DNA of 62,256 nucleotides. It comes from an uncultured Lentisphaerota bacterium (GTDB taxonomy: Bacteria > Verrucomicrobiota > Kiritimatiellia > CAIQIC01). The DNA lies in contig CAISWQ010000003.1 of NCBI GenBank assembly GCA_903889245.1, positions 1 to 62,256 of the forward strand, written 5' to 3'. The notes beneath the pieces were generated by a model. The model worked only from the letters and a program-made list of their open reading frames with translations. It did not search any database and was not told the DNA's origin. Position 1 is the first letter of the stretch; each line of letters opens with the position of its first letter. Positions 171 through 57,420 of the stretch are shown one piece after another. Both the position numbers and the translations under genes were made by a program.

Positions 171-314
171 GTTCCAAACCTTGGAACAATGCCGCCGCAA
201 CTTTTCCAAGGCTTGGAAAAAAGCGCGTAAACTTTTCCAAGCCCTGGAAAAGTGGCGGTTGTTTTTTTCCCAAGCCCTGGAAAAAACAGCCGGGTCACTT
301 TCCAAGGTCTGGAA
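171..314. repeat. palindrome array 1, five units
   Basis: There are five copies of the TTCCAAGSCTTGGAA palindrome, with cores centred at about 179, 211, 242, 275 and 307 (pitch 31-33 bp). Most copies carry T-runs on the left and A-runs on the right; spacers between them are not conserved. The last copy ends two bases before the pgsA ATG. The array is open in the pgsA frame, so a naive gene call adds 49 repeat-derived codons to pgsA. Confidence 0.95.
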
Positions 315-315
315 C

Positions 316-936
316 ATGGATGCGCAACTCCATCGGCCGAAGCTGACGCTGGCGACGAAAGTCACCATCGTCCGTATCATGGGCGTGCCGGTCTTCATCG
401 CGCTGCTGGTCTACTACCTGATCGGCCTGCAACGCGGCGAGGACATCTGGCTGGAACGCGTACTGGCGCTGGCGGTCTTCGCCGCCGTCGCGCTGACCGA
501 CGCGCTCGATGGCTACCTCGCGCGGTCGCGCAACGAGGTGACCGACCTGGGCAAGATGCTCGACCCGATCGCCGACAAGGCGCTGCTGCTCTCCGGGCTG
601 ATCCTGCTGACGCGGCCCGCGATCCCCGCGCTCGCGCCGCACATCCCGATCTGGTTCACCACGCTGGTCATCAGCCGCGACGTGGTGCTGATCCTCGGCG
701 CGGCGCTGGTCCACGCACTGGCGGGCAGCGTCACGGTCCAGCCGCGTGTCAGCGGTAAGCTGGCGACGTTTTTCCAGATGGCGACGATCATCTGGGTGCT
801 GATCGGCGGCGCGGAAAAACAGTTCAACTGGTTCGTCGGCACCGCCGCCGTGCTGACGGCGATCTCGTGGATCCAGTACGTCGTGGATGGCGCGCGCCAG
901 CTCGCCCACGTCCAGCACGGGCCGCAGCAGAAGTGA
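316..936 (+). CDS. pgsA: CDP-diacylglycerol-glycerol-3-phosphate 3-phosphatidyltransferase
   Basis: Integral membrane enzyme that transfers a phosphatidyl group from CDP-diacylglycerol to glycerol 3-phosphate, the committed step to phosphatidylglycerol. The CDP-alcohol phosphatidyltransferase signature is complete: D62, D65, G66, A69, R70, G79, D83 and D87. Several hydrophobic segments cover the remaining length. The 206-residue product is normal for the family. I chose the ATG at 316 because the in-frame stretch before it is only palindromic repeat. No clear Shine-Dalgarno is visible because the repeat fills that position. der follows after 12 bases on the same strand. Confidence 0.9.
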   Translation: MDAQLHRPKLTLATKVTIVRIMGVPVFIALLVYYLIGLQRGEDIWLERVLALAVFAAVALTDALDGYLARSRNEVTDLGKMLDPIADKALLLSGLILLTRPAIPALAPHIPIWFTTLVISRDVVLILGAALVHALAGSVTVQPRVSGKLATFFQMATIIWVLIGGAEKQFNWFVGTAAVLTAISWIQYVVDGARQLAHVQHGPQQK

Positions 937-948
937 CGAGGGACGAGT

Positions 949-2391
949 GTGAAGAACGAAATGAAGACTGACGAACATAGTACGGAAGCTGTGGGCGCTG
1001 ATCCCGCATCCCGTATCCTGCATCCTGCCTCTGCGTCCGGCCGCGTGCTTGCGATTGTCGGGCGGCCGAACGTCGGCAAGAGCGCGCTATTCAACCGGAT
1101 CGCCGGGCAGCGCATCGCGATTGTCCACGAGGAGAGCGGCGTCACGCGCGACCGGCTCGTCCACGAGGTGGTCCGCGACGGCGAGCGGTTCGAGCTGATT
1201 GATACCGGCGGGCTCGACACCTTCGACCGGCAGCAGCCCGACCACGAAATTCATCAGGGCACGCGGCAGCAGGTCGAGGTCGCGATCGAGGACGCCGCCG
1301 CGCTCATCTGGGTGGTGGACCTCACCGCCGGCTGCGTGCCGCTCGATGAGGAGGTGGGCTCCATGCTGCGCCGCAGCGGCAAGCCGGTGCTGCTCGCGGC
1401 CAACAAGGCCGACACCCCGCGGCTCGACCACCTGACGAACGAGTTCGAGAAATTCCATTACCCGATCTACCCGGTCTCCGCGCTGCACAACCGCGGCACG
1501 GGCGAACTGATCAGCGCGGCGCTCACGCACCTGCCGCCGGGCGCGCCGCCGGAGGCGGTGGATGCGCTCAAGGTCGTCATCGCCGGTCGGCCGAACGTCG
1601 GCAAGTCGTCGTTCGTCAACCGCCTGCTCGGTCACCAGCGCGTGATCGTCTCCAACGTGCCGGGCACCACGCGCGACAGCATCGAGGTCCCGTTCGTCAT
1701 CGGCAAAGGCCCGCAGGCGCGGCGCTACAAGCTGATTGATACCGCCGGCATCCGCAAGTCCGGCCGCCTGCACGAGGCCGTGGAAAAATTCAGCCTGATC
1801 CGCGCCGAGGAGAGCATCCGGCGCGCGGACGTCGTCGTGCTGATGCTCGATGCCGAGCAGGGACCGACCGCGCTCGATAAGAAGATCGCCGCGCTGATCC
1901 AGGCGGCGCAGAAGGGCTGCGTCGTCATCGTCAACAAGTGGGACCTCGCCGCCGGCCTCGTGAAAATGGAAGCGTATGAAAAGGCGCTGAAGAAGGTCTT
2001 CGCCTACCTCGCGGTGCCGGTCCTGTTCATCTCCGCGCACGATGGCACGAACATCCGCAAGAGCATCGAGGCGATTGACCGCGTCGCTGCCGCCGTGCAG
2101 CTCAAGCTGCCGACCGGCGTGATGAACCGCCTGCTGCGCGACGCCATGCAGAAGGTCCAGCCGCCGATGATCGAGGGCCGCCGCCTGAAGCTCTATTACG
2201 CCACGCAGGTCGGCACCAAGCCCGTCCGCCTCAAGCTCTTCGTCAACCAGACGCGCCGCCTGACGCCGGCTTACGAGACCTACCTCATCCGCGCGCTGCG
2301 CGCCGCGTTCGACCTCGATGGCGCGCCGGTGATCTTCCACCTCGCCTCCAGCCACACGCCGCTCACGCCGGGCGGCTCGGCCAGAACCTGA
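949..2391 (+). CDS. der: GTPase Der (EngA), ribosome assembly
   Basis: Double-GTPase required for 50S subunit maturation. Two G domains are visible, each with a GRPNVGKS P-loop (residues 38-45 and about 213-220), a DTGG or DTAG switch and an NKxD motif. A KH-like C-terminal domain follows. The start is uncertain. GTG 949 has GAGGGA upstream, and ATG 961 and GTG 1045 are alternatives. Residues 1-32 do not look like Der and are encoded by short intergenic-type microrepeats (CATCCCG-like), so the native protein may begin near GTG 1045. The function call is firm. Confidence 0.93.
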   Translation: MKNEMKTDEHSTEAVGADPASRILHPASASGRVLAIVGRPNVGKSALFNRIAGQRIAIVHEESGVTRDRLVHEVVRDGERFELIDTGGLDTFDRQQPDHEIHQGTRQQVEVAIEDAAALIWVVDLTAGCVPLDEEVGSMLRRSGKPVLLAANKADTPRLDHLTNEFEKFHYPIYPVSALHNRGTGELISAALTHLPPGAPPEAVDALKVVIAGRPNVGKSSFVNRLLGHQRVIVSNVPGTTRDSIEVPFVIGKGPQARRYKLIDTAGIRKSGRLHEAVEKFSLIRAEESIRRADVVVLMLDAEQGPTALDKKIAALIQAAQKGCVVIVNKWDLAAGLVKMEAYEKALKKVFAYLAVPVLFISAHDGTNIRKSIEAIDRVAAAVQLKLPTGVMNRLLRDAMQKVQPPMIEGRRLKLYYATQVGTKPVRLKLFVNQTRRLTPAYETYLIRALRAAFDLDGAPVIFHLASSHTPLTPGGSART

Positions 2392-2410
2392 TCGCAAAAA
2401 GGACATAGCT

Positions 2411-3619
2411 ATGAACCGCGTTTGCCAAAGCAGCCGTCGCACTGCCGGCCATGACGGAGCATGGCCCTCCCTGATCTGCAAAAGTGGCACAGGCCTCCGG
2501 CCTGTGTTCCGTTTGTCACAGGCGGGACGCCTGTGTCACGTTGCGGTTCTCCTGCTGTTGGCGCTCACCGCCCAAGCTGCCGATATGCTGGTCCGTCAGG
2601 ACATTCGCCTGCCCGACCTCGCCGGCTACCAGACGCTCAAGTGCGACTTCCACATGCACACCGTTTTTTCCGATGGCCAGGTCTGGCCCACGTGGCGCGT
2701 CGAGGAGGCCTGGCGCGATGGTCTCGACGCCATCGCCCTGACCGACCACATCGAGTACCAGCCGAAGAAAGCGGACCTCCCGACCAACCACCAGCGGCCG
2801 TTCGAGCTCGCCAAGGGCCTCGGCGCCGAGCGCGATCTCATCATCATCCGCGGCGCGGAGATCACGAAGGACGTTCCGCCCGGCCACTTCAACGCGCTCT
2901 TCCTTACCAACATCGTGCCGCTGGTCAGCAGTAACCTCGTCGAGCAGCTCGAGGAGGCGCGCAAACAGGACGCATTCGTCTTCTGGAACCACCCCGGCTG
3001 GCGCGTGAAGACCAACGAGGCCACCATCCTACCGCTCCATAACGAGCTTGCTGCGCAACAACTGATCCAAGGCGCCGAGCTTTATAACGGCGACGATGTC
3101 TACACCAACGTCTGGCCCTGGGTGATGCATCACAAGCTGACCTGGATTGCGAATTCCGACACGCATACGCCCATTGATCCGCCGCTGGCCAACCACGCCA
3201 AGCACCGCACCATGACGTTGGTCTTCGCCAAGGAACGCACGGCCAATGGCATCAAGGAAGCGCTGCGTGCCGGCCGCACCGCGGTCTGGGCGGGCGACAT
3301 CCTCGCCGGCTCCGCCGAGCTGCTCGCGCCGCTGTTCGCCGCCGCGGTGCAGATCGCGCCGCCGCATCTGCGCAACACCAAGAACGCGTTTGTGAAAATC
3401 ACCAACACCTCCGACGTGCCGTTCGTGCTGACGCGCAGCGGCAAGGCCGGACCGGAAAAACTGGAGCTACCCGCCGGCAAGACCGTGCTGCTGAAAATCG
3501 GCGTCGCCGCCAAACAACCGCTCCCGGCCCTCGACTACACCGTGGACAACCTCCTCACCGCCCTCAACTCCCCGCTGCCGGTGACGCTGACCGTGCCGGA
3601 CACCAAGCCCGGCAAATAA
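2411..3619 (+). CDS. secreted PHP-domain metal-dependent phosphoesterase
   Basis: A PHP domain begins near residue 77 with the metal-binding motif FHMHTVFSDG, then ALTDH and later histidines (NHPGW, NSDTHTP). This is the family of polymerase/histidinol-phosphatase-like phosphoesterases. A hydrophobic stretch (VAVLLLLALTAQA) looks like a Sec signal peptide but sits about 45 residues in. The preceding codons come from twin hairpins at 2488-2535. AAGGA lies eight bases before the ATG at 2411, so I keep that start. The C-terminal 80 residues look like a separate beta-rich domain. The substrate is unknown. Confidence 0.8.
   Translation: MNRVCQSSRRTAGHDGAWPSLICKSGTGLRPVFRLSQAGRLCHVAVLLLLALTAQAADMLVRQDIRLPDLAGYQTLKCDFHMHTVFSDGQVWPTWRVEEAWRDGLDAIALTDHIEYQPKKADLPTNHQRPFELAKGLGAERDLIIIRGAEITKDVPPGHFNALFLTNIVPLVSSNLVEQLEEARKQDAFVFWNHPGWRVKTNEATILPLHNELAAQQLIQGAELYNGDDVYTNVWPWVMHHKLTWIANSDTHTPIDPPLANHAKHRTMTLVFAKERTANGIKEALRAGRTAVWAGDILAGSAELLAPLFAAAVQIAPPHLRNTKNAFVKITNTSDVPFVLTRSGKAGPEKLELPAGKTVLLKIGVAAKQPLPALDYTVDNLLTALNSPLPVTLTVPDTKPGK
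2488..2535. repeat. twin hairpins inside a coding sequence
   Basis: Two adjacent hairpins: CACAGGCC-TCC-GGCCTGTG (2488-2506) and CACAGGCG-GGA-CGCCTGTG (2517-2535). They share outer arms related by inversion. They lie in frame in the N-terminal coding region of the PHP phosphoesterase, just before the signal-peptide core. The layout matches the intergenic twin-hairpin cassettes elsewhere in the window. Confidence 0.85.
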
Positions 3620-3626
3620 AGGATGA

Positions 3627-3705
3627 TTTTCCAAGGATTGGAAAGCGCACCGGCCGGTTTTCCAGGCATTGGAAAGTTTCGCGGGATTTTTTCCGGGGCT
3701 TGGAA
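3627..3705. repeat. palindrome array 2, three units
   Basis: Cores are centred at 3636, 3667 and 3698 (pitch 31 and 31). The array begins 10 bases after the PHP gene stop, between convergent genes. The second and third copies are degenerate in one arm. Confidence 0.92.
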
Positions 3706-3780
3706 CAGCCGCGCTCTGACGAGCGCAGCTACACGGAGGCGAGCTTGCTTCTGCCGGTCAGAAAAACCATCCCGAAAAAT

Positions 3781-4031: not shown

Positions 4032-4112
4032 CCACAAAAGCAAAGGAAGCGCGCGGTTCCGGAGCCTTCCATCACTCCAATACTCCACTGCTCCATCACT
4101 CCATTTTCTTCT

Positions 4113-7710: not shown

Positions 7711-7751
7711 GCACACACCCGGACGCGTTCGTGGAGTTGCCGCCAGGGGCT

Positions 7752-9961: not shown

Positions 9962-10013
9962 AGATTCGCTTGCCCCGGGTATAGGCTTCCCGGCTGTCAC
10001 CCACGGGAAAAAT

Positions 10014-10059
10014 TTCCAAGGCTTGGAAAAAGGAACTCGGTTTTTTCCAAACCTTGGAA
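10014..10059. repeat. palindrome array 3, two units
   Basis: Cores are centred at 10021 and 10052 (pitch 31), each with flanking T and A runs. The array sits between convergent genes and ends three bases before the ccsA stop codon. Confidence 0.93.
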
Positions 10060-10062
10060 CGG

Positions 10063-11699: not shown

Positions 11700-12284
11700 A
11701 TGCCGCCGCACGTGAAAATCCACTGGCAAGACTGGTTGTGCCTGCTGCCGCTGCCGCCCGCGTGGCGGCTGGCGGCGTTTACGTTCGGCGGCGCGGCCTG
11801 CGGACTAGCGTTGGTGGTGGCGCACATCTCCAACGCCGCTTCCTATCTCTCTGACAAACCCGAGGCCTGCCTCAACTGCCACGTAATGAACAACGCCTAC
11901 GCGACGTGGCAGCACGGCAGCCACGCGCACGTCGCCGAGTGCAGCGACTGCCATCTGCCGCACCAGAATCCCATCGCCGAGAAGGCCTTCCAGGCCCGCG
12001 ACGGCCTGCGGCATTCCTATGTCTTCACCTTCCGCCTCGAACCGCAGGCGCTGCATTTGTCGGAGGGGGCCAAGCCGGTCGTGCAGGAGAACTGCCTGCG
12101 CTGCCACGCCAACCAATTCATGATGGCGCGGCTGGCCTCGGTCAGTGAGCGCCGCTGCTGGGACTGCCATAGCGGCGTCCACGGCCGCGTGATCAGCCTT
12201 TCCGCCACGCCCCACGCCCAACGGCCGCCGATCCCCGACGCCGGCCTCGAATGGATGAAACCCAAAGCAGGAGCACAGCCATGA
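11700..12284 (+). CDS. nrfH: NrfH-type tetrahaem quinol dehydrogenase
   Basis: Membrane-anchored NapC/NirT-family cytochrome that passes electrons from menaquinol to NrfA. One N-terminal transmembrane helix (LAAFTFGGAACGLALVV) precedes four haem motifs in order: CLNCH, CSDCH, CLRCH and CWDCH. The 194-residue length fits NrfH. The ATG at 11700 was chosen so the hydrophobic anchor starts near residue 24. Its TGA overlaps the nrfA ATG by four bases, giving a fixed nrfHA operon. The promoter region is shared with the divergent resB-ccsA pair. Confidence 0.93.
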   Translation: MPPHVKIHWQDWLCLLPLPPAWRLAAFTFGGAACGLALVVAHISNAASYLSDKPEACLNCHVMNNAYATWQHGSHAHVAECSDCHLPHQNPIAEKAFQARDGLRHSYVFTFRLEPQALHLSEGAKPVVQENCLRCHANQFMMARLASVSERRCWDCHSGVHGRVISLSATPHAQRPPIPDAGLEWMKPKAGAQP

Positions 12285-13687
12285 ACACCAACGAAACGCC
12301 CCCAGCCAGGACGCTGCCCAAGTGGGTCGGCCCGGTGATTTTTCTGCTGACGGCGGGCATCATCGTCGTCCTCGCGTTGCTGGCGGTGAGCATCATGGAA
12401 CGCCGCTGGGAGGCGCAGCGGCCGGCGCTCGCGCTCAAGCCGATCGCCCAGTGGGAGCCGGACAACGCCGTCTGGGGCCAGAACTATCCACGCGAATTCG
12501 AGAGCTACCGCAACACGCGCGAAACCGGCACGCGCACCAAGTTCGGCGGCGGCCCGCCGCGCGACTACCTGGATGAAAATCCGCGGCAGGTGCTGCTCTT
12601 TGCTGGCAACCCGTTCAGCAAGGACTATAAACAGGCGCGCGGCCACTTCCATTCGATCGCCGATGTCACCGGCACCAAGCGCATCAGCGAGAAATCGCCC
12701 GGCACCTGCTGGACCTGCAAGAGCACCGATGTGCCGCGGCTGATGGCGGACATGGGTGTCGAGCAGTTTTCCAAGACACCGTTCGCCCAGCTCAAGGACC
12801 GCGTCACGCACTCCATCGGCTGCCAGGACTGCCATGACCCGGCGACGATGAACCTGCGCATCACGCGGCCCGCGCTCAAGGAGGCCTTCGCCGCGCAGGG
12901 CCGGAACATCAACGAGGCGACGCACCAGGAGATGCGCTCGCTCGTCTGCGCGCAGTGCCATGTCGAATACTACTTCAAGGACAAGGCCCTGCTGACCTTC
13001 CCGTGGGCCAAAGGCCGCGGCGTCGAGGACATGCTCGCCTACTACGACGAGATCAACTTCAGCGACTACACCCACGCCGTTTCCAAGACGCCGATGCTCA
13101 AGGCACAGCATCCCGACTTTGAAGTCTATAGCCACGGCATCCACGCCTACCGTGGCGTCTCCTGCTCCGACTGCCATATGCCCTATCGCACTGAGGGCGG
13201 CGTCAAGTTCACTGACCACCACGTCCAGAGCCCGCTGCTGAACATCGCCAACAGTTGCGCCGTCTGCCACCGCTGGGGCGAAGCCGAGATTCGCCAGCGC
13301 GTCGAGTCCATCCAGACCAAGGTTGCCGCCGTCAAGCAGAACGCCGAAGACGCGCTCGTCGCCGCACACCTCGACCTTGCCGCCGCCATGCAGGCGGGCG
13401 TCGCCGAGGCCGACCTGACTGGCCCGCGCCAGTTGGTCCGCCATGCCCAGTTCCGCTGGGACTACGTCAGCGCCTGCAACGGCATGGGCTTCCACGCGCC
13501 GCAGGAATGCACGCGCATCCTCGCCGACGCGATCAACGGCGCGCAACAGGCGCGGCTCGCCGTCGCGCGGCTGCTCGCCGCCAAGGGCCACAGCGCGCCG
13601 CCGAAACACCCCGATACCAGCACGCGCGAGAAGGCCGCCGCCATCATCAAGGCCTTCGAGGCCGGCGAAAAGGTCAACCTGCTCTAA
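12281..13687 (+). CDS. nrfA: ammonia-forming pentahaem cytochrome c nitrite reductase
   Basis: Periplasmic enzyme reducing nitrite to ammonium with six electrons. The active-site haem uses the lysine motif CWTCK (C143, C146, K147), and four CXXCH motifs follow (CQDCH, CAQCH, CSDCH, CAVCH). The catalytic Arg/Tyr/His region is present, and a Ca-site-like CHVEYYF follows haem 3. The N-terminus keeps an uncleaved hydrophobic helix (residues 17-38). The 468-residue length is normal. Together with nrfH it gives dissimilatory nitrate reduction to ammonium or nitrite detoxification. Confidence 0.96.
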   Translation: MNTNETPPARTLPKWVGPVIFLLTAGIIVVLALLAVSIMERRWEAQRPALALKPIAQWEPDNAVWGQNYPREFESYRNTRETGTRTKFGGGPPRDYLDENPRQVLLFAGNPFSKDYKQARGHFHSIADVTGTKRISEKSPGTCWTCKSTDVPRLMADMGVEQFSKTPFAQLKDRVTHSIGCQDCHDPATMNLRITRPALKEAFAAQGRNINEATHQEMRSLVCAQCHVEYYFKDKALLTFPWAKGRGVEDMLAYYDEINFSDYTHAVSKTPMLKAQHPDFEVYSHGIHAYRGVSCSDCHMPYRTEGGVKFTDHHVQSPLLNIANSCAVCHRWGEAEIRQRVESIQTKVAAVKQNAEDALVAAHLDLAAAMQAGVAEADLTGPRQLVRHAQFRWDYVSACNGMGFHAPQECTRILADAINGAQQARLAVARLLAAKGHSAPPKHPDTSTREKAAAIIKAFEAGEKVNLL

Positions 13688-13693
13688 AGCCGT

Positions 13694-13739
13694 TTCCAAG
13701 CCTTGGAAAAACATGCACCGGGCTTTCCAAGCCAGGGAT
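13694..13739. repeat. palindrome array 4, two units
   Basis: Cores are centred at 13701 and, degenerate, at 13732 (pitch 31). The first copy starts seven bases after the nrfA stop. The second keeps only its left arm well, so it looks like a decaying unit. Confidence 0.8.
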
Positions 13740-13817
13740 GAAGTCTGTGTGTGGCATTGACAGACCGCGCGGTTGGCCTATGCTCGCGCGGCGTCGCTGA
13801 CCGCGCTGCCTGAAATC

Positions 13818-17316: not shown

Positions 17317-17353
17317 GATTTTATCTCCAGTTGATTCGTTGCCCTGGATGGCG

Positions 17354-17430
17354 TTCCAAGGGTTGGAAAATTTTTCCCTGGTTTTTCCAAGGCTTGGAAA
17401 AACTCACGTATTTTTTTCCAAGCCCTGGAA
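17354..17430. repeat. palindrome array 5, three units
   Basis: Cores are centred at 17361, 17392 and 17423 (pitch 31 and 31). The array lies inside the SPFH operon, between the second SPFH stop (17436) and the arrestin-like start (17316). Confidence 0.95.
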
Positions 17431-17435
17431 AAAGC

Positions 17436-22439: not shown

Positions 22440-22514
22440 GCATGGCTTGTTTCCACCAAAGACAACCAAGGCAACGAACCCCCTTCGTTTTCTTTGTTAG
22501 CTTCTGTGTGGAAT

Positions 22515-22592
22515 TTCCAGGGCTTGGAAATCAAGCCGGTGATTTTTTCCAAGGCTTGGAACATGACTGACCCAAATTTCCAAGCCTTGGAA
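22515..22592. repeat. palindrome array 6, three units
   Basis: Cores are centred at 22522, 22554 and 22585 (pitch 32 and 31). The third unit lies inside the first codons of the PGPGW gene (residues about 6-10), and the second lies just before its ATG. The array therefore spans the leader and start of a coding region. Confidence 0.93.
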
Positions 22593-22874
22593 AAGGCGCC
22601 CGCGCCGCCGCAGCGGCATCCGCCGCATTGGATACGGCATTTGATCCGGCAGCTCATCGGCTGGGCGCTCATCATCATCGGCATCATTGATCTGCCGTTG
22701 CCGGGGCCGGGCTGGCTGATCATCGGGCTGGGGGCGATCGTGCTCGCGCCCTATGTGAGGATTTTTCACCGCTTCGTGGAATGGCTCAAGCGCAAGTTCC
22801 CGCAGTTGCGCGAGCCGCTGGACCGCTTCGAGCGCCGCCACTTCCCGCCACACGACGACCCGCCGCAGACGTGA
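22563..22874 (+). CDS. small PGPGW-motif membrane protein
   Basis: 103 residues. Two hydrophobic segments flank the family motif: IGWALIIIGIIDLPL, then PGPGW, then LIIGLGAIVLAPY. A basic tail ends in a His/Pro-rich stretch. This matches the small putative transmembrane family named for PGPGW; its function is not known to me. The ATG at 22563 lies between two palindrome units, so the first dozen residues are repeat-derived. An upstream in-frame ATG at 22494 would add only repeat sequence. Confidence 0.75.
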   Translation: MTDPNFQALEKAPAPPQRHPPHWIRHLIRQLIGWALIIIGIIDLPLPGPGWLIIGLGAIVLAPYVRIFHRFVEWLKRKFPQLREPLDRFERRHFPPHDDPPQT

Positions 22875-31820: not shown

Positions 31821-31855
31821 GATTTGCTCCTGTTTGCGACAACCGCCGCGCAGTT

Positions 31856-31932
31856 TTCCAAACCCTGGAAAATAAAACGAGGCTTTTTCCAAGCCCTGGA
31901 AAATTCCAGGGGATTTATTCCAAAGCTCGGAA
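31856..31932. repeat. palindrome array 7, three units
   Basis: Cores are centred at 31863, 31894 and 31925 (pitch 31 and 31). It lies 36 bases upstream of the GH106-like start, in the 5' region between that gene and the AraC regulator on the same strand. Confidence 0.94.
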
Positions 31933-32004
31933 ACGTGACCGGCCACGCCGGCGCCCGGCCCGCCCGTGCTACTCGGAAATCCCCGGCCTCCCGCCCCTCG
32001 TTAC

Positions 32005-32892: not shown

Positions 32893-32944
32893 GGATCTGA
32901 GAAGTAGAAAGTCAGATGTAAGATTTCCAAATTTTTCCCCGCTG

Positions 32945-33017
32945 GTGGGCGGGAGCTACAGCTCCCGCACAACACAACCACAGGCTGATGAACGCGGGAG
33001 CTGTAGCTCCCGCCCAC
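32945..33017. repeat. twinned hairpin cassette (REP/BIME-like)
   Basis: GTGGGCGGGAGCTACAGCTCCCGC at the left is mirrored by GCGGGAGCTGTAGCTCCCGCCCAC at the right, read here as two hairpins with a ~25-base spacer. The same cassette with a slightly different left loop occurs at 3781-3847. It occupies part of the 346-base gap between the AraC gene and the fucose operon. Confidence 0.85.
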
Positions 33018-33136
33018 AAACCCGGCTTTGCTCATGTTTCGCCTCACGATTCGGCTCGCGAGCCGCGTCCGGTCTTCCCATATCCCGCATCCGGCATCGC
33101 GCGACGCTGCGAAGAATGCCGCGCAAGCGGGGGCTG

Positions 33137-33238: not shown

Positions 33239-34282
33239 ATGAAACGTCAGGCTTTCGGTCGGACAGGATTGGACATGCCGCCGATCATCTTCGGCACGAG
33301 CTGCCTCGGCAACCTCTACGAGGCGCTGCCGTGGGCGACCAAGCTCGCGATCCTGCGCGAATTTTTCAAACACGTGCCCGCGCCGGTGGCGCTGGACTCG
33401 GCGGGCAAGTACGGCGCGGGCCTCGCGCTGGAGGTCATCGGCCAAGGCTGTCGCGAACTCGGCATCCCGGCGGCGAACCTCGTGTTGAGCAACAAGCTCG
33501 CGTGGGTGCAGACGCCGCTGACCGGCCCGGAGCCGACGTTCGAGCCGGGCGCGTGGGCCGATCTCAAGCACGACGCCGTCCAGAAGATCAGCTACGACGG
33601 CATCCTCGCATGCTGGCAGCAGGGCTGCGCGCTCGTCGGCGCGCCCTATCAGCCGCAGCTCGCGAGCGTGCATGATCCCGATGAATATCTGTTCGCCGCC
33701 AAGACGCCCGCCGAGCGTAAGCAGCGCTGGGCCGACGTGCTCGGCGCCTACCGCGCGCTGACCGAATTGAAGCAGCAGGGCAAGGTCAAGGCCGTCGGCG
33801 TCGGTTCCAAGGATTGGAAAACCATCCGCGAGATCGCCGCCGCGGTGGAACTCGACTGGGTCATGCTCGCGTGCAGCCTGACGATTTACACGCACCCGCC
33901 GGAGCTGCTCGCGTTCATCGCCGATCTGCACCGCCGCGGTATCGGCATCGTCAACAGCGCCGTGTTCAACGCCGGCTTCCTGACCGGCGGCGCGTTCTTC
34001 GACTACCGCAAGCTCGACCCGGCCAAGGCAGAGGACCAGCCCTACTTCGCGTGGCGCGAAAAATTCTTCGCACTCTGCAAGCAGTTCGCGGTCAAACCCG
34101 CCGTCGCCTGCGTCCAGTTCGGCATGACGCCGCCAGGCGTCGCCAGCATCGCGCTCAACACCAGCAAGCCCGACCGCGTGAAGCAGAATGTCGAGCTGGT
34201 TCAGACCGCCGTCCCTCCGACATTCTGGACCGCCTGTAAGGACGCCGGGCTGATCGCGCGCGATTATCCGTACGCTGGGTAA
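33239..34282 (+). CDS. aldo/keto reductase, probable L-fucose dehydrogenase
   Basis: Probably oxidises L-fucose at C1 to L-fuconolactone with NAD(P). The AKR tetrad is present: D53, Y58 (LDSAGKYG), K86 (LSNKLAW) and H145 (SVHDPDEY). The first ~60 residues follow the D-threo-aldose/L-fucose dehydrogenase type. 347 residues. The substrate is inferred from the neighbours: a fuconolactonase-like enzyme, a fucose mutarotase and a fucose permease. The start at 33239 has a weak GGGGAGAG upstream. It is the first gene of a six-gene operon. Confidence 0.82.
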   Translation: MKRQAFGRTGLDMPPIIFGTSCLGNLYEALPWATKLAILREFFKHVPAPVALDSAGKYGAGLALEVIGQGCRELGIPAANLVLSNKLAWVQTPLTGPEPTFEPGAWADLKHDAVQKISYDGILACWQQGCALVGAPYQPQLASVHDPDEYLFAAKTPAERKQRWADVLGAYRALTELKQQGKVKAVGVGSKDWKTIREIAAAVELDWVMLACSLTIYTHPPELLAFIADLHRRGIGIVNSAVFNAGFLTGGAFFDYRKLDPAKAEDQPYFAWREKFFALCKQFAVKPAVACVQFGMTPPGVASIALNTSKPDRVKQNVELVQTAVPPTFWTACKDAGLIARDYPYAG

Positions 34283-34350: not shown

Positions 34351-35208
34351 ATGACCAGTGACAAAAAACCGCTGCGCATTGATGCCCACCACCATTTCTG
34401 GAAATACGAGCCGGTCGAGTTCGGCTGGATTGATGACACGATGGCCGCGATCCGGCGCGATTTTCTGCCGGGACATCTGAAGGCGGAGCTGGCGGCGGCG
34501 GGGCTGGATGGCGTTGTCTCGGTGCAGGCGCGGCAGAGCGTGGAGGAGACCGCGTGGCTGCTGGGTATGGCGGAAAATTTCGACTTCATCAAGGGCGTCG
34601 TCGGCTGGGTGCCGCTCGCGCTTCCAACGGTTGGAAAAACGCTCGAAAAATTTTCCAAGCATTGGAAACTCCGCGGCGTTCGCCACGTGGTGCAGGGCGA
34701 GCCGGACGACCGCTTTATCCTCGGCGACGAATTCAACGCGGGCATCTGCCTGCTCCGCGAGTTCGGGCTGGTCTATGACATCCTGATCTTCGAGCGACAT
34801 TTGCCGCCGACCAGCGAGTTTGTAGATCGGCACCCGCAGCAGGTCTTCGTGCTCGACCACATTGCGAAGCCCAAGATCAAAGCCAACGAACTGGAGCCGT
34901 GGCGCAAAAACATCACCGAGCTCGCGCGGCGCGAAAACATCTACTGCAAAATTTCCGGGCTCGTGACCGAGGCCGATTACCAGACGTGGACCGAGGCGCA
35001 GTTGCAGCCCTATCTCGAAACTGTGTTCGCGGCGTTCGGCCCGCGCCGGCTGATGTTCGGAAGCGACTGGCCGGTCTGCCGCGTCGCCTGCGATTACAAA
35101 CGCTGGGTGGAACTCGTCGGCCGCTTCATCGCCAACCTTTCCGCCGACGAGCAGGCGCGCATCATGGGCGGCACGGCGGTCGAGGCCTATGGATTGAAGA
35201 ATGGTTGA
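34351..35208 (+). CDS. amidohydrolase-2 lactonase, probable L-fucono-1,5-lactonase
   Basis: 285 residues, TIM-barrel amidohydrolase. The metal-binding start is DAHHHFWKY (residues 11-19). The family stretch [12 protein letters not shown] is at about 109-120, and FGSDWPVCR near 240 supplies the last metal-ligand Asp. It hydrolyses fuconolactone to fuconate, the step after fucose dehydrogenase. Residues 91-106 are encoded by two copies of the window's 31-bp-pitch palindrome, yet the segment seems the normal length for the family (from memory). Start at 34351. Confidence 0.85.
34622..34667. repeat. palindrome pair inside the fuconolactonase gene
   Basis: Cores TTCCAACGGTTGGAA (centre 34629) and TTCCAAGCATTGGAA (centre 34660), pitch 31, are fully inside the coding sequence (residues 91-106). 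They match the intergenic family in core, pitch and A/T flanks. Confidence 0.9.
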
Positions 35209-36765: not shown

Positions 36766-38070
36766 ATGAAAATGTTCACCACGCAAGATGGAAAAAACCT
36801 GTTCGTCACCTTCGCCCTCGTGACGACGCTGTTCCTGCTCTGGGGCTTCTGCAACGGGATGATTGACATCCTGAACAAGCACTTCCAGAACACCCTGCAC
36901 ATCAACAAATTTCAGTCGGGCTTCGTGCAGTTCGCGAACTACCTCGGCTACTTCCTGATGGCGATCCCCGCCGGCCTGCTCGCGAAGAGGTTCGGCTACA
37001 AGGGCGGCATCATCATCGGCCTCGTGCTGATCGCGGCCGGCGCGTTCTGGTTCATCCCGGCGACGAAGATCGGCACCTACTGGGCGTTCCTCACGGGCCT
37101 GTTCATCCTCGCCACCGGCATGACCTGCCTCGAGACCATAGCCAACCCCTACGCCACCGTGCTCGGCCCGCCGGAGTCCGGCGCGACGCGCATCAACATG
37201 GCGCAGACCTTCAACGGCCTCGGCTGGATCCTCGGCCCGATCGTCGGCGGCTACTTCGTCTTCGGCAAGACCGGCGGCGAAGGCGCGGCCGCGGCCACCG
37301 CCGCGGTGGAAACCGCCAGCAACGCCGGGCTCTACATCCCCTACATGGGCGTCGGCATCGTGGTGACGATTCTCATCATCGTCTTCGCCATGGCCAACAT
37401 CCCCGACTTGCACAACGAGGAAGAGGTCAAGGCCGAGGCCACCGGCAAGGCCGTCAAGCCGCTGTGGACGCGCCAGCACTTCACGCTCGGCGTGCTCGCG
37501 CAATTCCTCTACGTCGCGGCGCAGACCGGCATCTTCAGCTTCTTCATCAACTACCTCGTCGAAAACGTCCAGGGTATGACCGACATGAAGGCCAAGGACT
37601 GGCTCGGCGTCGGCGGTTTCGGCCTGTTCATGGCCGGCCGCTTCTGTGGCAGCTTCGTCGTTGGCCTGATGAAACCGCAGAAGGCGCTCACGATTTATGC
37701 CGTGATCTGCTTCGTCCTCTCGCTGCTCGCGATGGCCGGCTTGGGCATGGTCGGCGTCGTCGCGCTCTTCGGCACGTTCTTCTTCATGTCCATCATGTTC
37801 CCGACCATCTTCGCGTTGAGTATCCGCGGCCTTGGCGAGCACACCAAGCTCGGTTCCTCGCTCCTCGTCATGTCCATCGTCGGCGGCGCCATCTGCCCGC
37901 CCCTCATGGGCTGGATCGCCGACATCAGCTCGATGAAGGTGGGCTTTGCCATCCCGACCGTCTGCTTCATCTTTATCGCCATCTACGGCTTACTCTGGAA
38001 GAAACTCGAGAGCAAGGACGCCGGCGAGGGCGGCAGCGATGAGCCGGTTTCGGTCCGCCCGGTGCACTGA
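36766..38070 (+). CDS. fucP: L-fucose:H+ symporter, MFS family
   Basis: 434 residues with twelve hydrophobic segments. The first-helix motif WGFCNGMIDILNKHFQ contains the proton-coupling Asp, and CLETIANPYATVLG holds the helix-4 Glu. Both are hallmarks of FucP. GGAG precedes the ATG. It imports L-fucose for the surrounding oxidative genes. The related glucose/galactose permeases share these motifs, but the FucU neighbour favours fucose. Confidence 0.92.
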   Translation: MKMFTTQDGKNLFVTFALVTTLFLLWGFCNGMIDILNKHFQNTLHINKFQSGFVQFANYLGYFLMAIPAGLLAKRFGYKGGIIIGLVLIAAGAFWFIPATKIGTYWAFLTGLFILATGMTCLETIANPYATVLGPPESGATRINMAQTFNGLGWILGPIVGGYFVFGKTGGEGAAAATAAVETASNAGLYIPYMGVGIVVTILIIVFAMANIPDLHNEEEVKAEATGKAVKPLWTRQHFTLGVLAQFLYVAAQTGIFSFFINYLVENVQGMTDMKAKDWLGVGGFGLFMAGRFCGSFVVGLMKPQKALTIYAVICFVLSLLAMAGLGMVGVVALFGTFFFMSIMFPTIFALSIRGLGEHTKLGSSLLVMSIVGGAICPPLMGWIADISSMKVGFAIPTVCFIFIAIYGLLWKKLESKDAGEGGSDEPVSVRPVH

Positions 38071-38081
38071 CGCGGATGCCG

Positions 38082-38191
38082 TTCCAAGGCTTGGAAATTT
38101 CCGCGTGGTTTTTTCCAAGGCTTGGAAAACTTGACCGCGAAACTGTCCAAGGCTTGGAAAAACCGACGATGTAGGTTTCCAATCCTTGGAA
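38082..38191. repeat. palindrome array 8, four units
   Basis: Cores are centred at 38089, 38120, 38152 and 38184 (pitch 31, 32 and 32). The array fills the 141-base gap between fucP and the epimerase-like gene and is the longest after array 1. Confidence 0.95.
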
Positions 38192-38211
38192 AACGTTGAA
38201 AGGGATCTGAC

Positions 38212-39462
38212 ATGAAACAGCTCGAAAAATTCAGCATGGGCGTCGGTGATCGCTTCGGCCGCGAGGGTGGCGCGCAACTGGCCGCGTTCATCAAGGCGAA
38301 GGCCGCCGGCGTCGAGATCGCGCCGGTCTGGAACAAGTCCAACCGCGAGCACCAGATCATCCATACCGCGCCGCCGGCCGTCCGCTGCGAGGCCGATTCC
38401 GCCGTCCGCGCCGCCGGCTGGAAGGGCGGCTATCACGTGGATGCCGACCACATCAGCCTCAAGAATGTGGATGGCTTCATCGCGGCCAGCGACTTCTTCA
38501 CGCTCGATGTCGCCGACTTCACCGGCAAGCCCGCCGAGGCCGACGCGATCAAGGCGTTCGCCGCACGCCACGCCCACCTGGCCGGCGCGTTGAAGATACC
38601 CGGCGTCACCGAGACCTATCACACCACGCCGCACCAGATTGAAAAAATCGCGGCGAAATACCTGCTCGCCGTGCAGGAGGCGGGGAAGATCTACCGCCAC
38701 GTCGCGGCGCAGAAGGGCGCGGAAAACTTCATCACCGAGGTCTCGATGGACGAGACCGACGCGCCCCAGACGCCGCTGGAGATGCTCTTCATCCTCGCCG
38801 CCATCGCAGATGAGAAGATCCCCGCGCAGACCATCGCGCCGAAGTTCACCGGCCGGTTCAACAAGGGCGTGGACTACGTCGGCGACGTTGCGCAGTTCGA
38901 GAAGGAGTTCAACGACGACCTCGCCGTGATCGCCTTTGCCGTGCGCCAGTTCGGGCTGCCGGCGAGCCTCAAGCTCTCGGTGCATTCGGGCAGCGACAAG
39001 TTCTGCATCTACGGCCCGATCCGCCGTGCGCTCCAGCGCACCGGCGCGGGATTGCACCTGAAGACCGCGGGCACCACGTGGCTGGAGGAATGCGCCGGGC
39101 TCGCGCTCGCCGGCGGCTACGGCCTGACGCTCGCGCGCGAAATCTATGCCGGCGCGCTCGCGCGCTTCGACGAGATGTGCGGCCCCTACGCCACCGTGAT
39201 TGACATCCACCGCCACAAGCTGCCGACCGCCGCCGAGGTCAACATGTGGACCGGCGCGCAGTTCGCCGCCGCGCTGCGGCACGACCAGCAGAACCCTGCG
39301 TTCAACCCCAACTTCCGGCAACTGCTGCACGTCGGCTACAAGGTAGCCGCAGAAAAAGGCGCGGCCTTCATCCAGGCCCTCGACGAGAACCGCAACTGCA
39401 TCGCCGACCTCGTCACCGACAACCTCTTCGAGAAGCACATGCGCCCGCTGTTCCTTGGTTAA
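38212..39462 (+). CDS. UxaE-like tagaturonate epimerase family protein
   Basis: 416 residues resembling UxaE, which epimerises D-tagaturonate to D-fructuronate. Motifs: MGVGDRFG at the start, YHVDADHI, SMDETDAPQTPLEM, KGVDYVGDVAQFEKEF, and SVHSGSDKF followed by LKTAGTTWLEE; these supply metal-binding Asp, Glu and His. It is last in the L-fucose operon, after a four-unit palindrome array. In this context its substrate may be the methyl (1-deoxy) analogue of tagaturonate, formed if the operon dehydrogenase oxidises L-fuconate at C5. GGGAT lies about 9 bases upstream. Confidence 0.83.
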   Translation: MKQLEKFSMGVGDRFGREGGAQLAAFIKAKAAGVEIAPVWNKSNREHQIIHTAPPAVRCEADSAVRAAGWKGGYHVDADHISLKNVDGFIAASDFFTLDVADFTGKPAEADAIKAFAARHAHLAGALKIPGVTETYHTTPHQIEKIAAKYLLAVQEAGKIYRHVAAQKGAENFITEVSMDETDAPQTPLEMLFILAAIADEKIPAQTIAPKFTGRFNKGVDYVGDVAQFEKEFNDDLAVIAFAVRQFGLPASLKLSVHSGSDKFCIYGPIRRALQRTGAGLHLKTAGTTWLEECAGLALAGGYGLTLAREIYAGALARFDEMCGPYATVIDIHRHKLPTAAEVNMWTGAQFAAALRHDQQNPAFNPNFRQLLHVGYKVAAEKGAAFIQALDENRNCIADLVTDNLFEKHMRPLFLG

Positions 39463-42170: not shown

Positions 42171-42177
42171 GGCACCC

Positions 42178-44105: not shown

Positions 44106-44107
44106 CC

Positions 44108-45097: not shown

Positions 45098-45299
45098 CGG
45101 GAACTCCGGTTGCGCGGGACTTTAGGCCGCGCCGCCCGCGCTGTCAAAGCCCGCCGCACCCGTGTTTGCAACCGGAAGAAAACCACGAGGTGGCGGCTGC
45201 GGTTGGTTCTATGGCGGCGAGACACCCCCGCTCCCAGTGAGCCGGAAACGCAGCTTCCACCGCGGTTTCCGGGGGACAAGTGAGCCCCCGTGGAAAAAT

Positions 45300-45314
45300 T
45301 TCCCAGCCTTGGAA
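45300..45314. repeat. single palindrome copy
   Basis: TTCCCAGCCTTGGAA, centre 45307, 30 bases before the M14 peptidase ATG. It has one arm substitution. No second copy is found at 31 bp on either side. A CGGGGG/CCCCCG hairpin lies just upstream. Confidence 0.8.
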
Positions 45315-45343
45315 CAGCGCGTGGGACGGCCTATGATACGGCC

Positions 45344-48989: not shown

Positions 48990-49005
48990 CCGGCTCCTTT
49001 CAGCT

Positions 49006-49083
49006 TTCCAAGCCCTGGAAAAAACTCCGCGAGATTTTCCAATGCTTGAAAAAACCGACCGCCTGTTTTTCCAACCCTTGGAA
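49006..49083. repeat. palindrome array 9, three units
   Basis: Cores are centred at 49013, 49044 and 49076 (pitch 31 and 32). It lies immediately upstream of the second GH29 gene (ATG 48989, minus strand). Another single copy, TTCCCGGCCCTGGAA, is at 49364-49378 just past the hisB stop. Confidence 0.93.
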
Positions 49084-49139
49084 ACAACGCACCGCTCACG
49101 GCCGTGAACTATGCCCGCCCGCCGCTGTTTTGGGGAATG

Positions 49140-49316: not shown

Positions 49317-49381
49317 ATCTTTGCGTCGTCGCGCAGCTCATGCCTGCCCCAGCCGTCCGGCTTTTCCCGGCCCTGGAAAAA

Positions 49382-49972: not shown

Positions 49973-50027
49973 GGTGCTCTCCTGACCGGCGGGAGCATAG
50001 TCGGCGGCACGGCTTGCGGCAACGGAT

Positions 50028-53330: not shown

Positions 53331-53401
53331 GGCGGTCACTCTCGCCGAGGCCGCGGCTGTTGTCTTGCCCCCGAACGGCAGATTTTTGTCTGGGAGCGGC
53401 A

Positions 53402-54142
53402 TCAACCGCCGGCGCCACGATAATGCGCGCGGTAGGCCCGCGGGGTGCGGCCCATCTGGCGGCGGAACTCGTGATTGAAATGGCTCTGGTCGGCGAACCC
53501 GCATTCGACCGCGACCGCCGCAAAGGATTGGGTGGTGAAGACCAGCGCGCGACAGGCCATGCGGACACGCAGCTTGCGGAGGTAGTGCTGCGGCGTGACG
53601 TGGAAACTCTGCCGGAACTTCCGCTCGAAGGCGCGCACGGAACAGCCGGACAGGCGGGCCAGCTCGCGGTTGGGCAGCGCCCGGCTGTAACCCTCCCGCA
53701 TCCGGTTCAGCGCGGCGGCAAAGCTGTAGGTTGCACCCAACCCGCGGGCGTCGGCGCCGAGGTCGCGGGTTGTACCCGCGGTGCCGATGATGCGCCCGCG
53801 CGCATCGCGCAGTGGCACCTTGTTGGTCACGCTCCACTGCGGCGGCACGTTCGTTCCGCCGACCAATTCAATGCGGTTATGGACCTCATGCCCCTTGAGC
53901 ACCTGCTCGTCATCGAACCAGAACTGATCGGCGAGGAACGCCGGCGAGAGCTCGTAGTCGGTTTTGCCAACGATGTGTGCGACCTCCTCGAGCGCGTAAT
54001 TGATCAACAGCGTGCGGTTGGCGTGGAGATAACGATTCCGGCGATCCTTGATCCAGAACTGCACCTGCTCCAGGTGGTCGAACAAACTCACGAGGCCGGC
54101 CACCAGGGCCTCCAGCCTGAAGGGTTGGAAACGGGCTTTCAT
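53402..54142 (-). CDS. PAS domain AraC-family regulator
   Basis: 246 residues. An N-terminal PAS domain (FDHLEQVQFWIKDRRNRYLHAN, split; then GKTDYELSPAFLADQ and GTAGTTRDLG) is fused to an AraC-type double helix-turn-helix (RELARLSGCSVRAFERKFRQ and FAAVAVECGFADQSHFNHEFRR, each a helix pair). The PAS may bind a ligand or sense redox. It is divergent from the GH127-like gene, its likely target. The frame is open upstream without homology; ATG 54142 gives a clean PAS start. Confidence 0.87.
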   Translation of the reverse strand: MKARFQPFRLEALVAGLVSLFDHLEQVQFWIKDRRNRYLHANRTLLINYALEEVAHIVGKTDYELSPAFLADQFWFDDEQVLKGHEVHNRIELVGGTNVPPQWSVTNKVPLRDARGRIIGTAGTTRDLGADARGLGATYSFAAALNRMREGYSRALPNRELARLSGCSVRAFERKFRQSFHVTPQHYLRKLRVRMACRALVFTTQSFAAVAVECGFADQSHFNHEFRRQMGRTPRAYRAHYRGAGG

Positions 54143-54271
54143 CCCCGCAGCCGGCGCGGCTGGCTGGCCGGACAACCGTTGGTGGTTTCGTGGCACGGCC
54201 GCATTGTACGGCGCGCCCACGCTTTGGCAATCAGCTTGTCTTGCCCCGGGCGCGGCCTATACTCCGCGCCC

Positions 54272-55996: not shown

Positions 55997-56096
55997 AAGC
56001 CGACCGAACTCCGCAGGCCCCGCCAGCGCTTGCATCGCGCGGTGGTCTTTGCTATCAAGCGCCGCCCCGGTTAGGCCCGGGCAGCAGGAGAAACTT

Positions 56097-57314
56097 ATGG
56101 CCACGGAAAAATTGGTCGGTAACATGCTGATCGCCCAGAGCGGCGGTCCCACAGTCGTCATCAACCAGAGCCTCGTCGGCGCGGTGCTGGAGGCGAAGAA
56201 GCACAAGGAGATCAAGAAGATCTACGGCTCGCTCCACGGCCTCAAGGGCATCCTGGAAGAAAACCTCTGCGACCTCGGCAAGGAAACGAAGCAGAACCTC
56301 GAACTCGTCGCCCAGACGCCCTCCTCCGCGCTCGGCTCCGTCCGCAAGAAACCCACGCCGGAAGATTGCGTGAAGGTCTTCGCCGTGCTCCAGAAGTACA
56401 ACATCCGCTACTTCTTCTACATCGGCGGCAACGATAGCGCCGAGACCACGCACATCATCAACGAGGCCGCGCAGCAGGCCGGCTACCAGATGAAGTGCTT
56501 CCACATCTGCAAGACGATTGACAACGACCTGCGCGAGAACGACCACACCCCCGGCTTCGGCAGCGCCGGCAAGTTCGTCGCCCAGGCGTTCATGGGCGAT
56601 AACCTCGACAACCGCGCCCTGCCCGGCGTCAAGATCAACGTCATCATGGGCCGGGGCGCCGGCTTCCTCACCGCCGCCTCCGCGCTCGCCCGCGTGTTCC
56701 CCGGCGACGGCCCGCACCTGATCTACATCCCCGAACGCCCGTTCTCGCTCCCGCAGTTCGTCGCCGACGTCCAGCGCGTCATGGCCGGGCAGAAGCGCTG
56801 CGTCGTCGCCGTCAGCGAGGGCATCGTGGATGAGACCGGCGAGCCCATCGCCAGCAAATTCATCTCCGAGGTGGATTCGCACGGCAACAAGCAGCTCTCC
56901 GGCAGCGGCGCGCTCGGCGATGCGCTCGCGAAGGAGATCAAGGAGAAGGCGCAGATTTCCCGCGTCCGCTCCGACACCTTTGGCTATCTCCAGCGCAGCT
57001 TCACCGGCGTTGTCAGCGCCGTGGACGCGAAGGAAGCGCGGCTCGCCGGCGCGAGCGCCGTCAAGTTCGCCTGCGGCGGCCAGTTCAACAACGGCTCTAC
57101 CGCGATCAAACGCGCACCGGGCAAGATCTACAAGACCTGGATCGAGCGTACTGAGTTGCGCAACGTCGCCAAGGAAACGCGGCACATGCCCGACGAGTTC
57201 ATCAACGCCGCGGGCAACGATGTGACGCCGGCCTTCATCAAGTACGCCGCACCCATCGTCGGCCCGCTGCCGAAGATCGGCCGCCTGAAGGCCGCGCCGG
57301 TCTCGAAGAAGTAA
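56097..57314 (+). CDS. pfp: pyrophosphate-dependent 6-phosphofructokinase
   Basis: 405 residues. It phosphorylates fructose 6-phosphate, reversibly using PPi. Motifs: AQSGGPTVVINQSLVG, IGGNDSAETT (Asp after GGN, the PPi-type residue), CKTIDNDL, MGRGAGFLTAAS and the ERPF substrate loop. CAGGAG lies before the ATG at 56097. PPi-type PFKs are common in PVC bacteria. A palindrome array follows the stop. It is a housekeeping glycolysis gene and lies outside any sugar operon here. Confidence 0.93.
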   Translation: MATEKLVGNMLIAQSGGPTVVINQSLVGAVLEAKKHKEIKKIYGSLHGLKGILEENLCDLGKETKQNLELVAQTPSSALGSVRKKPTPEDCVKVFAVLQKYNIRYFFYIGGNDSAETTHIINEAAQQAGYQMKCFHICKTIDNDLRENDHTPGFGSAGKFVAQAFMGDNLDNRALPGVKINVIMGRGAGFLTAASALARVFPGDGPHLIYIPERPFSLPQFVADVQRVMAGQKRCVVAVSEGIVDETGEPIASKFISEVDSHGNKQLSGSGALGDALAKEIKEKAQISRVRSDTFGYLQRSFTGVVSAVDAKEARLAGASAVKFACGGQFNNGSTAIKRAPGKIYKTWIERTELRNVAKETRHMPDEFINAAGNDVTPAFIKYAAPIVGPLPKIGRLKAAPVSKK

Positions 57315-57342
57315 CCGCGACCGCGCCAACCCCGGCCGGGTT

Positions 57343-57420
57343 TTCCAAGGCTTGGAAAAAAGAGCCGTGACATGTTCCCATCCTTGGAAAATCCGGGCGG
57401 TCGTTTTCCCATCCTTGGAA
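57343..57420. repeat. palindrome array 10, three units
   Basis: Cores are centred at 57350, 57382 and 57413 (pitch 32 and 31). It lies between the PFK stop and the next gene. The second and third units share a TTCCCATCCTTGGAA variant, which suggests local duplication or gene conversion. Confidence 0.94.

What the first reader, a model, noticed from the sequence alone, without database searches (positions are those of the whole stretch)
171..57420. A palindrome family in arrays with a fixed 31-33 bp pitch (about three helical turns)
Core TTCCAAGSCTTGGAA, often flanked by T4 on the left and A4 on the right, forms eleven arrays of 2-5 units plus lone copies. Centres: 179/211/242/275/307; 3636/3667/3698; 10021/10052; 13701/13732; 17361/17392/17423; 22522/22554/22585; 31863/31894/31925; 34629/34660; 38089/38120/38152/38184; 49013/49044/49076; 57350/57382/57413. 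All 22 intervals are 31-33 bp, while spacers differ in sequence. Such phasing would put each dyad on one face of the helix, and the T/A tracts fall every ~15-16 bp. Spacer divergence with a conserved pitch argues for selection on spacing, as for a cooperative DNA-binding or architectural protein. A mobile or amplifying repeat is the alternative. I know of no named family with these properties.
Basis: seen in the sequence. Interest (0 to 1): 0.85.

Follow-up and report, generated by a model that had tools for sequence, protein, structure and literature searches.

The report
Evenly spaced, helix-phased palindrome arrays
Bacteria of one little-studied class carry hundreds of short clusters of the same DNA palindrome, set whole helix turns apart within a cluster and placed about every five thousand letters along the chromosome, which looks like docking sites for an unknown chromosome-organising protein.

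Summary
The window has 36 core matches against 0.93 expected; the genome has 2466 against 15 reversed. In 1.13 Mb sampled, 245 arrays (589 units) give 333 of 344 intervals of 31-32 bp, mean 31.37 = three turns of 10.46 bp. Neighbouring spacers are unrelated.

New here: (1) pitch is quantised in helical turns, at 22/31-32/42-43 bp in one distant genome (50 of 170 pairs seen) and, more weakly, at 42 and 52-53 bp in this genome's exceptions; a third genome shows no quantisation. (2) Arrays are spread more evenly than chance, about every 5 kb, repeated on one contig of a second species. (3) In-gene arrays differ from relatives by substitution, not insertion. (4) Class members use lineage 'dialects' of the core. 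(5) The arms do not covary, so it is not a hairpin.

Best reading: cooperative dimer sites of an unidentified architectural protein. The class's Lrp was tested and not supported as binder. Molecular drive, as in uptake sequences, remains a live rival. No description was found in open-access papers; one key species paper was not held.

The parts
170..316 (.). array of 5 units, centres 179/211/242/275/307, pitch 32,31,33,32
3627..3707 (.). array of 3 units, centres 3636/3667/3698, pitch 31,31; 8 bp after the stop of gene 2585-3619
10012..10061 (.). array of 2 units, centres 10021/10052, pitch 31; convergent intergenic region
13692..13741 (.). array of 2 units (second one weak), centres 13701/13732, pitch 31; 5 bp after the stop of gene 12281-13687
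17352..17432 (.). array of 3 units, centres 17361/17392/17423, pitch 31,31
22513..22594 (.). array of 3 units, centres 22522/22554/22585, pitch 32,31
31854..31934 (.). array of 3 units, centres 31863/31894/31925, pitch 31,31; arrays at the orthologous flank in G002 and G003
34620..34669 (.). in-gene array of 2 units, centres 34629/34660, pitch 31, inside the amidohydrolase gene 34351-35208; G002 and G003 have the same length there and no units
38080..38193 (.). array of 4 units, centres 38089/38120/38152/38184, pitch 31,32,32; orthologous 3-unit arrays in G002 and G003 with diverged spacers
49004..49085 (.). array of 3 units, centres 49013/49044/49076, pitch 31,32
57341..57422 (.). array of 3 units, centres 57350/57382/57413, pitch 32,31; 2-unit array at the orthologous flank in G003
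45298..45316 (.). lone unit, centre 45307 (1 mismatch), intergenic
49362..49380 (.). lone weak unit, centre 49371 (3 mismatches), intergenic
33803..33821 (.). lone match, centre 33812, inside a gene; conserved codons in relatives, probably chance

Best explanation
Each unit (TTTTCC-N7-GGAAAA) is the binding site of a homodimeric DNA-binding protein with two independent half-sites. Two to five dimers sit on one face of the helix, usually three turns apart and in some lineages also two or four, and bind cooperatively as one nucleoprotein node. Nodes are kept about every 5 kb in base pairs rather than per gene, and arrays inside genes tend to lie far from other arrays. I infer that the nodes organise the chromosome (bridging, looping or supercoil insulation) rather than regulate single promoters. 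Shown: the sites, their symmetry without arm covariation, pitch, helical quantisation in two genomes, evenness, conservation and dialects. Inferred: the protein, its cooperativity and the chromosome role.
For: 333 of 344 intervals at 31-32 bp, mean 31.37. Helical quantisation at 21-22, 30-32 and 42-43 bp in 48 of 50 listed pairs of G121. 15 of G000's 19 pairs at 36-60 bp lie at 42 or 52-53. No arm covariation in 589 units. Units and pitch kept while spacers diverge in orthologous arrays; 16 of 27 arrays with two or more units have a G000 array within 100 bp. Even spacing: CV 0.566 against 0.83-0.91 for three nulls, none of 400 simulations as low for each; CV 0.47 against 0.88 on one G001 contig. 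Spacing is more regular in bp than in genes or intergenic regions. In-gene arrays lie further from the next array than random coding points (median 3188 against 1656 bp, n 20, p 0.003). Precedents for phased dimer sites: Lrp-family regulators two or three turns apart (PMC2995911, passages), NrdR three or four turns (PMC12051234, passages), E. coli Lrp bridging DNA over kilobases (PMC10127797, abstract and passages).
Against: No binding protein found; the single-copy Lrp is not supported. G251 pitches are scattered. Four of the 11 pairs at 52-53 bp in G000 share a related insert; collapsing them gives p 0.012. No periodicity beyond array ends. Turnover is high: 11 of 27 multi-unit relative arrays are not matched in G000. 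Evenness was tested in two species of one genus only, and a drive process could also give it. Many class members have no such arrays at all.
Confidence: 0.5

Rival explanations
1. Self-recognition sequences kept by molecular drive, as for DNA uptake sequences: a receptor prefers DNA carrying arrays and recombination of that DNA spreads them; an existing array lowers the advantage of another nearby, which gives even spacing.
For: Even spacing, in-gene sites made by substitution, lineage dialects and placement at weakly constrained 3' ends. Larger arrays have slightly more distant neighbours (rho 0.24, p 0.003). ComEC is present in 49 of 51 class genomes. A drive model for relatively even uptake sequences is described in PMC7811141 (passages), which elsewhere calls the distribution uneven.
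Against: ComEC is present in array-free genomes too and was not found in one array-bearing draft, G003. Phased palindrome arrays have no parallel among uptake sequences known to me (recall). Mean H. influenzae spacing is about 1 kb, against about 5 kb between arrays here.
Confidence: 0.15
2. Operators of a global transcription regulator of the Lrp or NrdR kind, acting at many promoters.
For: Same geometry as known phased operators. 37 of 100 to 44 of 100 intergenic regions of at least 40 bp in divergent and convergent position carry arrays (33 of 90 and 31 of 70). Four genomes without a RAM-domain protein (G028, G047, G171, G220) have no arrays.
Against: Arrays avoid starts and hug stops (9 against 20.9 expected within 15 bp of a start; 38 against 15.3 within 10 bp of a stop), occur inside genes and are spaced by bp rather than by gene. 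Recognition positions of the single-copy Lrp vary freely among 19 genomes with one core, and arrays lie near few Lrp genes. Ten genes next to window arrays share no function.
Confidence: 0.15
3. Mobile or amplifying repeats (REP-like elements or tandem duplications of a 31-bp unit).
For: High copy number and 3'-end placement. Local duplication is visible in G007 and G009 and at the one 42-bp-pitch locus of G000. Spacers match somewhere else slightly better than shuffled ones do (median 0.75 against 0.67).
Against: Neighbouring spacers unrelated; two in-gene arrays differ from relatives by substitution without insertion; helical quantisation of pitch; even spacing.
Confidence: 0.07
4. RNA hairpins or transcription terminators.
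For: A palindrome with flanking T and A tracts, often right after a stop codon.
Against: No excess of compensatory changes at nine arm pairs in 589 units, and at one pair a shortage; in the AY dialect C often stands opposite A across the dyad in the listed sites; arrays also lie in divergent regions and inside genes.
Confidence: 0.03

Closest known systems
Lrp/AsnC (feast/famine) operator arrays, for example archaeal BarR
   Same: 15-bp semipalindromes, 4-5 in a row with 15-17 bp spacers in Sa-BarR and St-BarR (PMC10201364, passages), which by my arithmetic is 30-32 bp centre to centre (the paper words it as two helical turns); two or three turns centre to centre in the family (PMC2995911, passages).
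NrdR boxes
   Same: Two palindromic boxes needing a whole number of turns between centres, three or also four (PMC12051234, passages).
   Different: A different palindrome (recalled), two boxes per promoter of a few ribonucleotide reductase operons; not tested against this genome.
DNA uptake sequences (USS/DUS)
   Same: High copy number, in-gene tolerance, lineage dialects (recalled) and a relatively even distribution ascribed to drive (PMC7811141, passages).
   Different: Uptake sequences are not phased palindrome arrays; spacing about 1 kb against about 5 kb here.
REP/BIME elements
   Same: Palindromic repeats in intergenic DNA near gene ends (recalled; REP described in the abstract of PMC3733652 listed).
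   Different: No arm covariation, no insertion, unrelated spacers, helical pitch.
HIP1 highly iterated palindrome of cyanobacteria
   Same: A short palindrome iterated through a genome (recalled).
   Different: Single 8-bp sites without phased arrays (recalled).

Membership tests
Lrp/AsnC operator arrays | 15-bp palindromic sites two or three turns apart | tested here: met
   15-bp core, mean pitch 31.37 bp; 22 bp also in G121 and G009
Lrp/AsnC operator arrays | bound by an Lrp-family protein whose recognition helix is kept with the motif | tested here: not met
   single-copy Lrp in 19 genomes with the AA core: commonest residue only 37-63% at most exposed helix positions; HTH 0.68 against RAM domain 0.81 mean conservation. 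Sequence argument only, no binding data
NrdR boxes | NrdR-box palindrome upstream of ribonucleotide reductase genes | tested here: inconclusive
   core differs from the recalled NrdR box, and arrays flank many unrelated genes; NrdR and RNR loci were not searched
DNA uptake sequences | preferential uptake of marked DNA | not testable with these tools
   only ComEC presence was checked, 49 of 51 genomes, not discriminating
REP/BIME elements | hairpin-forming palindrome with compensatory arm changes | tested here: not met
   no excess of paired changes in 589 units
REP/BIME elements | insertion of copied units | tested here: not met
   two in-gene arrays aligned with relatives show substitution, no inserted unit; other in-gene arrays untested
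Tandem duplication arrays | alignable spacers between neighbours | tested here: not met
   0.34 against 0.33 random identity, 0 of 93 at 70% or more; local exceptions in G007 and G009
CRISPR arrays | long identical repeats with spacers of about 30 bp next to cas genes | not tested
   repeat unit of 15-19 bp and free spacer of 12-13 bp make it unlikely; cas genes were not searched

The most novel reading that the evidence does not exclude
A bacterial class marks its chromosome about every 5 kb with helically phased operator arrays for an unknown protein. The arrays are written into intergenic DNA and, where gaps are long, into genes by point mutation, and they shift in dialects with the protein: a physical-distance code for bacterial chromosome organisation.
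Probability: 0.4. Interest if true: 0.92.

Novelty: categorically new. Interest (0 to 1): 0.82.

Why it matters
How bacteria set regular structure along a chromosome without nucleosomes is an open question. A sequence element with a measured helical pitch, a measured chromosomal spacing and natural dialects makes it testable: the dialects predict co-varying residues in the binder, and its presence or absence across the class predicts which gene it is. If the uptake rival is right instead, it would be a new kind of self-DNA label.

Tried and rejected
Tandem duplication: rejected as the main source, though local duplication is visible in G007 and G009. Hairpin: rejected. Mobile insertion: disfavoured. 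Lrp as binder: first favoured for its geometry and for more 4-unit than 3-unit arrays (42 against 36), then not supported. Helical periodicity of degenerate sites beyond array ends: seemed present but vanished when one 42-bp-pitch locus and ends with close neighbours were left out (p 0.40). Finding the binder among genes beside arrays in low-count genomes: only pheT (two genomes, over 1 kb from the array) and thiL (two species of one genus) recurred. The 42-bp-pitch array in contig C28 lies beside no obvious DNA-binding gene. Competence as a discriminator: ComEC is nearly universal. Viral contigs: three IMG/VR contigs carry the pair; their sites were listed, their genes not examined. Literature: (listings) gave no description; find-in-text of PMC6388578, PMC10880615 and PMC6920513 gave nothing on it.
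Full report
OBSERVATION. The core TTCCAAGSCTTGGAA matches 36 times in the window with up to 3 mismatches, against 0.93 expected (maximum 4 in 100 shuffles). All eleven arrays and 22 intervals of 31-33 bp are as described. In the whole genome (G000, 5.26 Mb, 125 contigs) there are 2466 matches with up to 2 mismatches against 15 for the reversed pattern, and 883 exact against 0.

ANATOMY. In 1,133,894 bases of G000 (30 contigs or parts of contigs, 21% of the genome, not chosen at random) a symmetric 19-bp profile found 245 arrays with 589 units; the reversed sequence gave 6. Units per array: 1 (48), 2 (110), 3 (36), 4 (42), 5 (9). Pitch: 31 (206), 32 (127), 30 (5), 33 (3), and 29, 27 and 26 once each. 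The mean of 342 intervals of 29-34 bp is 31.37, or 10.46 bp per turn over three turns. Weak units were accepted only 29-34 bp from a strong one, which favours that pitch slightly, but the plain count without this step gave 31 (130), 32 (73) and singletons. The C and G positions of TTCC/GGAA hardly vary, the middle three are loose. Changes on the two arms show no excess of paired change at nine symmetric pairs, and a shortage at one: a dimer reading two half-sites rather than a hairpin. In a 738-kb subset, spacers of neighbouring units are no more alike than random ones (0.34 against 0.33; 0 of 93 at 70% or more), although the best match of a spacer anywhere is somewhat better than for shuffled spacers (median 0.75 against 0.67).

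HELICAL QUANTISATION. In G000 the relaxed pair TTCC-N7-GGAA occurs 1048 times at pitch 29-35 and 19 times at 36-60. The 19 lie at 42 (4), 52-53 (11) and 39, 44, 48 and 60. Periodicity at 10-11 bp has p about 0.001; it stays at p about 0.0007 when one locus counts once and a chance match in a tRNA-like stretch is dropped, and weakens to p 0.012 when four pairs that share a related insert are also counted once. Some 52-bp pairs contain a middle unit (31+21). In G121, a one-contig genome of another family, the 50 listed pairs (of 170; allowed range 19-49) fall at 21-22 (8), 30-32 (30) and 42-43 (10), with one each at 37 and 40 (p<0.001, also without the 31 peak). In G009 arrays alternate 22 and 30-31 bp, with A/T-rich 22-bp gaps that look alike between loci. 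G097 has 32 in 18 of 19 pairs and 31 in one (read). Against this, 50 listed pairs of 171 in G251 are scattered (p 0.07 overall and 0.95 without the 31 peak), and degenerate sites beyond array ends in G000 show no periodicity.

SPREAD AND DIALECTS. With TTCCAA-N3-TTGGAA pairs at pitch 29-35, 38 of 387 phylum genomes match, 37 of them in the same class. With TTCC-N7-GGAA, 79 of 387 match: 57 in the class, 22 outside with 1-2 pairs each except G098 with 6; the reversed control gives 12 hits in five genomes. In family f4, genera g5, g7 and g10 have no AA-core pairs but 2-135 relaxed pairs, and the listed ones are mostly TTCCAY-N3-RTGGAA at 30-31 bp. Listed pairs of f19 and f25 add a looser TTCCRR-N3-YYGGAA. 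Families f12, f28 and f5 show none, f26 almost none.

EVOLUTION. Of 43 relative arrays with an alignable flank, 24 have a G000 array within 100 bp; among those with two or more units 16 of 27, against about 4% that I estimate from array density. The 43 include single units in conserved codons, and one G002 array counted twice through overlapping loci. Conserved arrays keep units and, with a few 28-29 bp exceptions, a 31/32 pitch while spacers diverge (for example C18:82364, C28:57649, window 38089). The in-gene array at window 34620-34669 aligns without gaps to G002 and G003, which lack the units. The in-gene array at C14:1543-1575 aligns with degenerate sites in G003, one codon shorter. So these sites were gained or lost by substitution. 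A 5-unit array in a photolyase gene (C30) may lie in an enlarged linker; I did not test it.

POSITION. By my own simple gene calls (a script, not a published gene finder), 200 of 245 arrays are intergenic, 13 at gene edges and 32 well inside genes. In tandem intergenic regions 38 of 100 arrays start within 10 bp of the upstream stop (15.3 expected, maximum 26 in 400 placements), and starts are avoided (9 against 20.9 within 15 bp). Clusters of two or more units (193) are more even than chance: 166 gaps, mean 5.5 kb, CV 0.566 against 0.907 (uniform), 0.848 (intergenic) and 0.829 (transcription-unit boundaries), none of 400 simulations of each as low; gaps under 2 kb are 8% against 23-28%. Clusters of three or more units are not clearly even (CV 0.80 against 0.90-0.95). 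Gaps are more regular in bp (CV 0.57) than in genes (0.64) or intergenic regions (1.04). One 105.9-kb contig of G001 repeats this (21 arrays, CV 0.47 against 0.88, p 0.0005, uniform null only). In-gene arrays of two or more units (20) lie further from the next array than random coding points (median 3188 against 1656 bp, p 0.003).

WHO BINDS. Not found. Lrp/AsnC regulators have this geometry, and 56 of 60 class genomes have one or two RAM-domain proteins; the four without (G028, G047, G171, G220) have no arrays. But many array-free genomes have one too, exposed recognition positions vary freely in 19 genomes sharing the AA core, and few Lrp loci have sites nearby. ComEC does not discriminate (49 of 51 genomes). 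Genes beside arrays in ten low-count genomes show no common regulator in the loci seen, and ten genes next to window arrays have unrelated functions, one without a family.

READING. Same-face dimer sites are well supported. Their role as regularly spaced chromosome nodes is the simplest account of evenness in base pairs and of in-gene arrays in long gaps, but drive could give the same pattern. Literature searches covered open-access PubMed Central only; the first Kiritimatiella genome paper was not held. The rating 'categorically new' rests on those searches and on the failed membership tests, and would drop if the binder proved to be an ordinary global regulator.

Noticed in passing
window 32940-33020: A 75-80 bp inverted repeat (two arms around GGGAGCTACAGCTCCC); BLAST finds it at 80-88% identity at many places in G003 and several in G001. 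A separate dispersed hairpin repeat, no Rfam match.
   Followed up: partly
window 59985-60012 and 60107-60130: Two copies of an imperfect palindrome (TTCCACACTTrGGAAAGTGTG) about 122 bp apart in one region.
   Followed up: no
L131 (G000 contig C28) 14655-14938: An unusual array: seven units at exactly 42 bp, then one at 31 bp, with partly similar spacers.
   Followed up: partly
L241 (G098, outside the class) 1-140 and 1500-1610: Four TTCCAAAGTTTGGAA units at 33/29/33 bp and five nearby palindromes of the type TTCCCACAGTGGGAA 23-34 bp apart, in one locus.
   Followed up: no
L185, L186 (G002, G003), orthologous to window 38070-38212: A GC-rich hairpin sits between the stop codon and the array in both relatives, its T run merging with the first unit; a second hairpin repeat follows the array. 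Both are missing in the window genome.
   Followed up: no
L225 (G009): Compound arrays alternating 22 and 30-31 bp, with A/T-rich short gaps that look alike between loci.
   Followed up: partly
L248-L251 (three IMG/VR contigs): Array pairs in contigs filed as viral; genes not examined.
   Followed up: no
L286 (G001), L277 (G007) and others: Several class genomes carry a second, short RAM-domain-only protein of about 100-130 aa beside the full-length Lrp.
   Followed up: no
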